Below are positions 205 to 44,698 of a stretch of 44,698 bases of DNA, piece after piece. The translations under genes and the position numbers were made by a program. The stretch comes from Clostridium ljungdahlii. Its GTDB lineage: Bacteria; Bacillota; Clostridia; Clostridiales; Clostridiaceae. The notes beneath the pieces were generated by a model. It searched no databases and was not told where the DNA came from. It was given only the letters and a program-made list of their open reading frames with translations. The stretch is from the NCBI RefSeq assembly GCF_001636845.1, contig NZ_LITT01000017.1, positions 1-44,698 on the forward strand. Reading direction: 5' to 3'. Numbering within the stretch: position 1 is the stretch's first letter; every line of letters starts with the position of its first letter.

Positions 205-317
205 AATAAAAACGAAAGAAAAAAGTTTACTGTGCAATTTTGAGAGGACAGAGTAATTTGAACTCTTAAAAGATAATATAAAAGAAAATTGATAGAAATA
301 GCAATTTTCGATAATAG
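205..317 (+). other. 23S-5S internal transcribed spacer
   Basis: An AT-rich spacer of about 113 nt with no ORF. It ends in an inverted repeat, gaaaattg at 284-291 and caattttc at 302-309, immediately before the 5S gene. The hairpin could form part of a processing stem for 5S maturation, which is an inference from position only. Confidence 0.6.
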
Positions 318-6419: not shown

Positions 6420-6645
6420 AAAATTAACTGATGAAGAGGTTAGTAGCTTTAAAGTGATTTAAGAGAGTCAGTATCTTGGTGCAAGCTGATATCATAATAT
6501 TGTGAATCCACCTTGGAAGTACTGATAAAAGCAGTTCGGTAATGCCGTTATAAATTAGAGAGAATTAGCATTAACTTGTTAATTAAATAGGGTGGCAACA
6601 CGGAGTCTTTCGTCCCTTTGGGGTACGTAAAGGCTCTTTTTATAT
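6420..6645 (+). promoter_or_regulatory. T-box riboswitch (serine) controlling serS
   Basis: A tRNA-sensing leader. The conserved T-box core agggtggcaacacgg lies at 6589-6603. The specifier region gaaTCCacc has TCC (Ser) at 6507-6509. The antiterminator bulge reads TGGC, which pairs with the GCCA end of tRNA-Ser (discriminator G, as in all four Ser tRNAs of this window). The competing terminator hairpin runs from 6603 (gagtcttt) to 6636 (aaaggctc), followed by T5. Uncharged tRNA-Ser is expected to allow read-through into serS. Confidence 0.92.
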
Positions 6646-38309: not shown

Positions 38310-38546
38310 TAGTAAATTTGATATTGTTCTATGAAGAGAATAGTAACATAAGTTAGGTAATAGAGAGTCAGTGGAAGGTGCAAACTGATACCAATGCTTT
38401 TGTGAATCCACCTCAGAGAATTATTATGATGAATAATACGGAAAAACCGTTATTTTAATGAGAGAGTTATATTATTATATAACTAATAAGGGTGGCAACG
38501 CGAACCAATCGTCCCTATGTGGGATTTGATTGGTTCTTTTTTATTT
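38310..38546 (+). promoter_or_regulatory. T-box riboswitch 1 (serine), serine operon
   Basis: The T-box core agggtggcaacgcg lies at 38489-38502 and the specifier TCC at 38407-38409 in the context gtgaatccacc, identical to the serS leader. The bulge TGGC fits the GCCA end of tRNA-Ser. The terminator gaaccaatc/gattggttc (38502-38510, 38528-38536) is followed by T6. Confidence 0.92.
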
Positions 38547-38585
38547 ATAATGAATTCTCATATGTTAAGTATTTTGCTAATAGTA

Positions 38586-38818
38586 TTTCAAATTTAATAT
38601 TATTCTATGAAGAGAATAGTAACATAAGTTAGGTAATAGAGAGTCAGTGGAAGGTGTAAACTGATACCGATGCTTTTGTGAATCCACCTCGGAGAATTAT
38701 TATGATGAATAATACGGAAAAACCGTTATTTTAATGAGTGGGTTATATTATTATAACCAACAAGGGTGGCAACGCGAGGCAATCGTCCCTAAAGGGATCT
38801 GGTTGGCTTTTATTTTTT
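38586..38818 (+). promoter_or_regulatory. T-box riboswitch 2 (serine), serine operon
   Basis: A near-copy of T-box 1 at a 276-nt offset, with specifier TCC at 38683-38685 and core agggtggcaacgcg at 38763-38776. The terminator stem (38777-38784 with 38801-38808) has one G-G mismatch and looks weaker than that of T-box 1. Both must be antiterminated for full expression. Confidence 0.92.
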
Positions 38819-43710: not shown

Positions 43711-43739
43711 TTGACAGATTAAAACTCAGATGATATACT
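43711..43739 (+). promoter_or_regulatory. rRNA operon promoter
   Basis: TTGACA (43711-43716) and TATACT (43734-43739) are 17 bp apart, ~420 bp before the 16S gene. No second rrn promoter is evident between it and the 16S gene. Confidence 0.85.
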
Positions 43740-43745
43740 ATAAAA

Positions 43746-43783
43746 GCTGTCGAAGTGAGACGGCAAAATGATCCTTGAAAATT
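43746..43783 (+). promoter_or_regulatory. rRNA antitermination site, boxB and boxA
   Basis: A hairpin gctgtc/gacggc (43746-43764) is followed by boxA-like TGATCCTTGAAAATT (43769-43783), the order seen in Gram-positive rrn leaders. It should bind NusB/NusE and shield the transcript from early termination. Confidence 0.7.
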
Positions 43784-43837
43784 AAACAGAGGAAGATATA
43801 AGTATAACTTATTTAGAATAAACCAGCAATTCTTTTG

Positions 43838-43899: not shown

Positions 43900-44017
43900 A
43901 AAATTGATAGTAACGAGTACAGCGAGGAAAATGCTGAACGAGGAGCGGAACTTACTAACGTAATTGAGCACCACAGTGAAGTATTTGAGGTCGCAGGGCG
44001 AAGTTAATATCAATTTT
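43900..44017 (+). repeat. Pre-16S leader structured repeat, copy 1 (118 nt)
   Basis: The ends aaaattgata and tatcaatttt pair. Inside are small hairpins (cagc/gctg, ttac/gtaa, tcg/cga) and the shared blocks taacgagta, cgaggagcgga, tgagcaccacag and gcgaagtta. Copy 2 follows after two bases with the same length. It matches no RNA family I recognise. Confidence 0.85.
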
Positions 44018-44019
44018 CT

Positions 44020-44137
44020 AAAATCAATAATAACGAGTAGTTCAAGGAAAGCCTTGAGCGAGGAGCGGAGTTTACTTAAGTAAATGAGCACCACAGCGAA
44101 AGGTTTGACGCAGAAATGCGAAGTTAGTATTGATTTT
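44020..44137 (+). repeat. Pre-16S leader structured repeat, copy 2 (118 nt)
   Basis: The ends aaaatcaata and tattgatttt pair; relative to copy 1 both strands have changed so that pairing is kept. Hairpins caagg/ccttg, tttac/gtaaa and gca/tgc occupy the same places as those of copy 1 with different sequences, while the linking blocks are conserved. Confidence 0.85.
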
Positions 44138-44159
44138 TAACAGAGCCATAAAAACTTTT

Positions 44160-44698
<539 letters not shown>

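What the first reader, a model, noticed from the sequence alone, without database searches (positions are those of the whole stretch)
43900..44137. Two tandem 118-nt structured elements with compensating changes in the pre-16S leader
The copies have equal length, a 2-nt spacer and different sequences in their paired segments. The closing stem is aaaattgata/tatcaatttt in copy 1 and aaaatcaata/tattgatttt in copy 2, so both strands changed together. Inner hairpins cagc/gctg and caagg/ccttg, and ttac/gtaa and tttac/gtaaa, show the same. Unpaired-looking blocks (taacgag, cgaggagcgga, gagcaccacag, gcgaagtta) stay constant. This is the signature of a conserved RNA. It could be a binding site for a maturation factor or an RNase, an antitermination extension, or a small RNA cut from the rRNA precursor. 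I know of no named family that matches.
Basis: partly seen in the sequence, partly recalled or inferred. Interest (0 to 1): 0.75.

Follow-up and report, generated by a model that had tools for sequence, protein, structure and literature searches.

The report
Repeated RNA hairpin in ribosomal-RNA operons
Two neighbouring RNA hairpins in front of a ribosomal RNA gene belong to an uncatalogued family of repeated, structured RNA elements that often sit just before ribosomal and transfer RNAs in Clostridia and occur as scattered, mobile-looking repeats in other genomes.

Summary
Two 118-nt copies are real, fold strongly and match no Rfam family. They belong to a family: the same genome has 15 copies, all in rRNA operons (before 16S, in the 16S-23S spacer, between 23S and 5S). 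A covariance model finds it in 50 of 206 Clostridiaceae, 43 of 391 Clostridia and 34 of 398 genomes of a phylum sample; one proteobacterial MAG carries 33 copies.

On 85 distinct sequences all 37 pairs show two-sided changes and 92% of cells pair. G-U outnumbers A-C 119 to 24, which points to the rRNA-sense RNA strand as the one selected. In 15 chosen genomes 180 of 181 copies are on the strand of a neighbouring rRNA or tRNA gene. The element usually ends 2-11 nt before the Rfam-marked start of 23S, 5S or tRNA, with exceptions up to 264 nt.

In another clostridial genome (69 matches) it is dispersed; a duplicated hairpin flanks some copies, and orientation to genes shows no clear bias.

Best reading: an RNA-structured, mobile-derived element that settled in rRNA operons, folds on its own in pre-rRNA and is removed during maturation, possibly aiding 5'-end processing. 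Function and removal are inferred, not shown.

The parts
43900..44017 (+). element copy 1 (118 nt, irregular unbranched hairpin)
   Evidence: R1 129.4 bits
44020..44137 (+). element copy 2 (118 nt); ends 21 nt before the RF00177 match
   Evidence: (R1 135.4 bits)
285..308 (+). core-less remnant of the element in the 23S-5S spacer: closing stem only (AAAATTGATAGAAATAGCAATTTT); the paralogous spacer on contig C1 holds a full copy
43711..43739 (+). rrn promoter-like TTGACA-17-TATACT upstream of the leader
   Evidence: read; not tested
43770..43792 (+). boxA-like sequence and 5' arm of the 16S processing stem (GATCCTTGAAAATTAAACAGAGG); near-complement in the 16S-23S spacer of contig C43
   Evidence: pairing read by eye
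44159..44698 (+). 16S rRNA gene (5' part; contig ends inside it)
   Evidence: RF00177 555.6 bits

Best explanation
The two copies are members of an uncatalogued family of about 118-nt structured RNA elements: one unbranched irregular hairpin with conserved purine-rich internal loops around GAGGAGCGGA...UGAGCACC. The family behaves as a mobile or interspersed repeat in some genomes. In the 15 genomes of two families that I counted it is nearly confined to rRNA and tRNA operons, in sense orientation, usually a few nucleotides before the RNA gene's 5' end. Shown: RNA-level selection, position, sense orientation, presence/absence between operons of one genome. Inferred: each copy folds autonomously as the pre-rRNA is made, keeps the spacer from disturbing the mature RNA, and is cut out with the spacer by ordinary rRNA-processing nucleases, leaving a short 5' overhang to be trimmed. 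It started as a mobile element and persists because it is compatible with, and possibly helps, 5'-end maturation.
For: Covariation on 85 distinct sequences: 92.1% of cells paired (shuffles 74.5), 37 of 37 pairs with two-sided change (22.3), score 0.500 vs 0.171; slid controls at most 0.110. G-U 119 vs A-C 24. Sense fold more stable than antisense in 92 of 92 copies. In 15 chosen genomes 167 of 181 hits lie upstream of a 5S on the same strand and none was found antisense near a 5S; of the other 14, 13 lie in rRNA/tRNA loci in sense (one placed by inference) and one beside a tRNA 3' fragment (by eye). Of 38 hits between 23S and 5S, 36 end 6-11 nt before 5S, two 77 nt. Before Rfam-marked 23S starts the gap is 2-9 nt in 19 of 25 loci; before tRNAs 4-11 nt in 7 of 9, and 11 nt in L053. 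Gain/loss: three of nine C. ljungdahlii operons carry the pre-23S copy; three others that I read have only a short hairpin there. Mobility: a duplicated hairpin flanks 8 of 28 copies of genus g13 and two in G604.
Against: No expression or processing data. Presence is patchy: several Clostridiaceae with assembled rRNA operons gave no match (e.g. G035, G036, G052, G066, G122), so no universal role. No partner protein was identified; only PF13751 was sought, in three genomes, and RNA-binding proteins were not searched. Shuffle controls do not remove relatedness, and A4 was fitted to the model. Copies are often identical between operons, so 181 is far above the number of independent sites. Six of 25 pre-23S gaps are 29-264 nt, and pre-5S gaps of 72-82 nt occur in L037, L044 and L073. 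Some copies in other Clostridia look antisense to genes (L152, L108, L118, by eye), and one G064 copy lies 10 nt from a tRNA on the opposite strand (L126).
Confidence: 0.6

Rival explanations
1. A purely selfish MITE-like DNA element. rRNA and tRNA spacers are merely tolerated sites, and the sense bias reflects purging of antisense copies or descent of a few insertions spread by operon gene conversion.
For: Duplicated hairpins around 8 of 28 g13 copies; no clear orientation bias relative to genes in one genome (++ 7, -- 6, +- 7, -+ 0 of 20 loci taken from 69); deletion derivatives and presence/absence; 33 copies in one alphaproteobacterial MAG.
Against: Covariation and G-U bias show RNA-strand selection, also in the G064 set (G-U 34 vs A-C 4; sense fold lower in 26 of 26), though those copies share recent ancestry; preferred spacing to 5' ends in many genera; no target duplication noticed at the rRNA sites that I read.
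Confidence: 0.3
2. A cis-acting antitermination RNA (like the put RNAs of phage HK022, recalled) repeated along rrn operons to keep RNA polymerase processive.
For: Multiple copies along one operon, up to seven (L066); one near the start of the transcript before a boxA-like site in G356 (by eye).
Against: A boxA-like sequence is already present; spacing is tied to RNA 5' ends; copies occur before tRNAs and beside terminator-like hairpins; many relatives have none.
Confidence: 0.08
3. A stable small RNA cut from pre-rRNA acts in trans.
For: Strong autonomous fold and conserved internal loops.
Against: No expression data; several divergent copies per operon; core-less derivatives exist.
Confidence: 0.05

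Closest known systems
ERIC and Bcr1-type structured interspersed repeats (PMC2267715, passages read)
   Same: Short, multi-copy, hairpin-forming, intergenic, no ORF
   Different: Here: spread over families and phyla, RNA-strand covariation, sense residence before rRNA/tRNA genes. That survey flagged and dropped 11 cluster groups lying in rRNA precursors; no ERIC or Bcr1 sequence was compared
MITEs (IS1182-like ends suspected from recall)
   Same: In G064/G024/G604: short non-coding unit with ends of the type TGTTGAnAAAG (by eye); a duplicated hairpin flanks some copies
   Different: No matching transposase found (one Pfam family, three genomes); rRNA copies have other ends and no target duplication was noticed
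Motifs near 5S expansion segments noted by Stepanov and Fox 2021 (PMC7812874; abstract, outline and passages read)
   Different: Sequence not available here, so identity untested; could be this family or the second motif GAAACTC.CTCAGC seen beside it
rRNA intervening sequences (e.g. in C. paradoxum 16S, recalled)
   Same: Similar length, structured, inside rRNA transcripts
   Different: The copies placed here lie in spacers or leaders, outside the Rfam rRNA matches; IVS lie inside mature rRNA; sequences not compared

Membership tests
Any Rfam 15 family | covariance model match | tested here: not met
   Searches (gathering; E <= 10): only SSU rRNA and chance scores
MITE | short, non-coding, multi-copy | tested here: met
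   copies; non-coding by inspection only
MITE | target-site duplication | tested here: inconclusive
   exact flanking repeats of 9 nt or more in 12 of 28 g13 copies (26 from G064, 2 from G024), of which 8 are a hairpin; 16 have none. rRNA copies were read by eye, not scanned
MITE | matching autonomous transposase with the same ends | tested here: not met
   one interrupted PF13751 transposase in G064, ends differ (by eye; its two pieces scanned apart); a partial match in G604; none in G024
rRNA intervening sequence | lies inside a mature rRNA gene | tested here: not met
   elements of these loci lie outside the Rfam rRNA matches
ERIC-like repeats | sequence homology to ERIC | not tested
   no ERIC sequence was compared
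rrn antitermination RNA | promotes readthrough | not testable with these tools
   needs a reporter assay

The most novel reading that the evidence does not exclude
A cross-phylum, RNA-structured mobile element whose sense RNA is itself needed, for its spread or for host rRNA 5'-end maturation, so that it has become a repeated functional module placed before 16S, 23S, 5S and tRNA ends in Clostridia: a bacterial counterpart of a SINE domesticated in stable-RNA operons.
Probability: 0.22. Interest if true: 0.88.

Novelty: new variant of a known kind. Interest (0 to 1): 0.68.

Why it matters
It adds an RNA family with very strong covariation that has no match in Rfam 15. If it aids maturation, it would be a modular 5'-processing signal for rRNA and tRNA. 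If it is selfish, it shows how a repeat can live inside the most constrained transcripts of a cell by being sense, self-folding and removable. Either way the question of how Clostridia mature their rRNA ends becomes directly testable, because operons with and without the element coexist in one genome.

Tried and rejected
Rfam at E <= 10: chance hits only. PLSDB plasmids with the window's leader as query and IMG/VR viral contigs by one exact pattern: none. Hypothesis that a 23S insert in family f28 is this element: the unfiltered model found the pre-23S copy and, inside 23S, only a 9.4-bit match at chance level. IS1182-like transposase as partner: one interrupted gene in G064 with different ends, a partial match in G604, none in G024. 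Site orthology: the nearest neighbour in another genome is at the same site class for 23 of 32 copies of the genus, but mean identities hardly differ by site (0.769, 0.765, 0.764), so descent by site is only partial. Absence in G001 and G006 of the genus was dropped as evidence: a 23S query also finds nothing in those drafts, so their rRNA operons appear unassembled. attC sites and bridge RNAs were considered from recall and not pursued. Literature: 8 searches, of which only the listed results were seen, showed no paper on this element by title or abstract start. Three papers were read in part: PMC7812874 (abstract, outline, passages), PMC2267715 (passages), PMC4022347 (passages). No supplements were opened, and subscription papers are mostly not in the library.

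Full report
WHAT IS THERE. The window is contig C18 of a 4.36-Mb genome in 65 contigs, several of which break at rRNA operons. Copy 1 (43900-44017) and copy 2 (44020-44137) are 118 nt each, two bases apart, 74% identical, and copy 2 ends 21 nt before the 16S match. Each folds into one long irregular hairpin more stable than 200 of 200 shuffles. Rfam 15 has no match. Upstream lie a promoter-like TTGACA-17-TATACT and the boxA-like 5' arm of the 16S processing stem (read).

SAME GENOME. Model R1, built from 15 own copies, finds those 15. They lie in 16S leaders with two copies (C18, C63, C9, C27) or one (C34, C28, C19), in a 16S-23S spacer with three (C43), and in a 23S-5S spacer (C1). The window's own 23S-5S spacer has only the closing stem (285-308), where C1 has the whole element.

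HOW WIDE. R1 matches 34 of 118 relatives and 50 of 206 genomes of the family. R2, built from 92 matches, matches 43 of 391 genomes of the class and 34 of 398 of the phylum sample. These counts include the window's own genome and used strict filters; drafts often lack rRNA operons, so they are lower bounds. A pattern scan of named genomes gave 71 stretches. They include C. ragsdalei, C. magnum, C. liquoris, C. luticellarii, C. sulfidigenes, C. senegalense and C. thailandense, and also MAGs labelled Alpha-, Gamma- and Deltaproteobacteria, Bacteriovoracaceae and Rickettsiella. In the ten genomes behind ten loci picked from it (six with such labels, four clostridial) R2 found 1 to 33 copies each at E <= 0.01: 33 in the alphaproteobacterial MAG, 25 in Rickettsiella, 13 in the deltaproteobacterial one. 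Some of these matches are partial or weak, and MAG labels were not checked for contamination.

IT IS AN RNA. On A4 (92 rows, 85 distinct, mostly rRNA copies) the 37-pair structure has 92.1% paired cells, two-sided changes at 37 of 37 pairs, and covariation 0.500. Shuffles gave 74.5%, 22.3 pairs and 0.171, and slid partners at most 0.110. These controls do not fully remove relatedness, and A4 was fitted to the model. Two further results point to the strand: G-U cells outnumber A-C cells 119 to 24 (other mismatches 223), and the sense fold is more stable than the antisense in 92 of 92 copies (means -30.0 and -18.4). In the copies of A5 the bias persists in G064 (34 to 4; 26 of 26) but is weak in other Clostridia (33 to 28; 29 of 31) and in proteobacterial MAGs (3 to 2; 6 of 7).

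WHERE IT SITS. I counted 15 genomes with few contigs from two families (f1, f28); G064 and G024, where the element is dispersed, and G004 and G010 were left out. Of 181 matches, 167 lie upstream of a 5S gene on the same strand within 7 kb (by distance: pre-23S 92, pre-5S 36, pre-16S 22, spacer 15, 23S-5S far 2), and none was antisense near a 5S. The other 14 were followed. Eleven are in rRNA operons without a nearby 5S: ten by Rfam, motif or 23S match, one (G204:40822) by inference. Two are in a tRNA cluster. One lies against a tRNA 3' fragment (by eye). The distance classes are mechanical; in one genome the 16S stretch reads N, so its 'pre-16S' labels are unverified.

GAPS. In one search, 36 of 38 matches between 23S and 5S end 6-11 nt before 5S and two 77 nt; in other genomes 72-82 nt also occurs (L037, L073; L044 is one of the two at 77) beside 3-9 nt (L045, L051, L052, L054). 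Recounted by script over the loci scanned with Rfam: to the 23S match 2-9 nt in 19 of 25 loci and 29, 74, 91, 91, 98 and 264 nt in the rest; to tRNAs 4-11 nt in 7 of 9, else 33 and 110; to 16S 2-37 nt in six of six; to 5S 4-8 nt in eight of eight. One copy (L126, in G064) lies 10 nt from a tRNA on the opposite strand. Gaps are to Rfam match starts, not to mapped RNA ends, and copies are often identical between operons, so independent cases are fewer.

GAIN AND LOSS. Three others that I read carry only a short hairpin, AAAATTACTAAAAGTAATTTT (twice) or AAAATTGCTAATAGCAATTTT, whose arms differ in a paired way. One C. kluyveri operon (G011, likewise) lacks the element between 23S and 5S. Several other Clostridiaceae with assembled 23S genes gave no match. 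Deletion derivatives of 45 nt occur in G061 (three) and G418 (two).

OTHER CONTEXTS. Two T-box leaders of G046 contain it (Rfam T-box matches spanning both). In G064 a copy lies before a gene with TGS and tRNA_SAD domains, thrS-like, in what looks like a T-box leader (by eye; Rfam did not call it). It lies 15-18 nt before the start of rplB in two genomes, and it looks antisense to neighbouring genes in some (by eye). In G064 (69 matches) it is dispersed. Among 28 copies of genus g13 (26 G064, 2 G024) 15 are preceded by a conserved tail. Twelve have exact flanking repeats of 9 nt or more, of which eight are a hairpin, for example 17 bp AGCACGCGGCGCGTGCT and, in G024, 21 bp AGGCAGGATATTATCCTGCCT; sixteen have none. 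In 20 of the 69 G064 loci the neighbours are ++ 7, +- 7, -- 6 and -+ 0, with ORFs called by a simple script.

MECHANISM. Shown: RNA-level selection, sense residence in stable-RNA operons of the genomes counted, preferred spacing, presence/absence between operons, hairpin duplications around some dispersed copies. Inferred: co-transcription, autonomous folding, removal with the spacer, a possible aid to 5'-end maturation, and mobile origin. I give 0.6 to the whole reading and roughly 0.35 to a positive role in maturation.

NOVELTY. As a structured interspersed repeat it has known counterparts (ERIC, Bcr1; PMC2267715, passages). The RNA-strand selection, range and placement set it apart. The nearest remark in print that I saw is one passage of PMC7812874, which may or may not concern the same motif.

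Noticed in passing
L178, L190, L206 (C. magnum 23S-5S), L277 (C. kluyveri pre-23S), L047 (G046): A second repeated motif, of the type GAAACTC.CTCAGC..GCTGA.GAGT.C plus a following hairpin, sits beside the element and in one T-box leader replaces its core (by eye).
   Followed up: no
L134, L137, L140 (family f9) and L326 (G356): The element lies before a duplicated tRNA 3' fragment, in some cases between a CCATGGATGC arm and its complement; the arrangement recurs in two families (by eye).
   Followed up: no
L136, L150: The element sits 15-18 nt before the start codon of ribosomal protein L2.
   Followed up: partly
L104 11431-13046 (G009): A 23S gene of 1616 nt matching the Rfam model from end to end, so with about 1.3 kb missing inside; it explains the short distances.
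   Followed up: partly
L130, L132 (G418, G506): The first part of 23S is longer than the Rfam model by roughly 135-165 nt, an insert that the element model does not recognise.
   Followed up: partly
window 38322-38793 and 6422-6620: Three T-box leaders, two of them in tandem.
   Followed up: no
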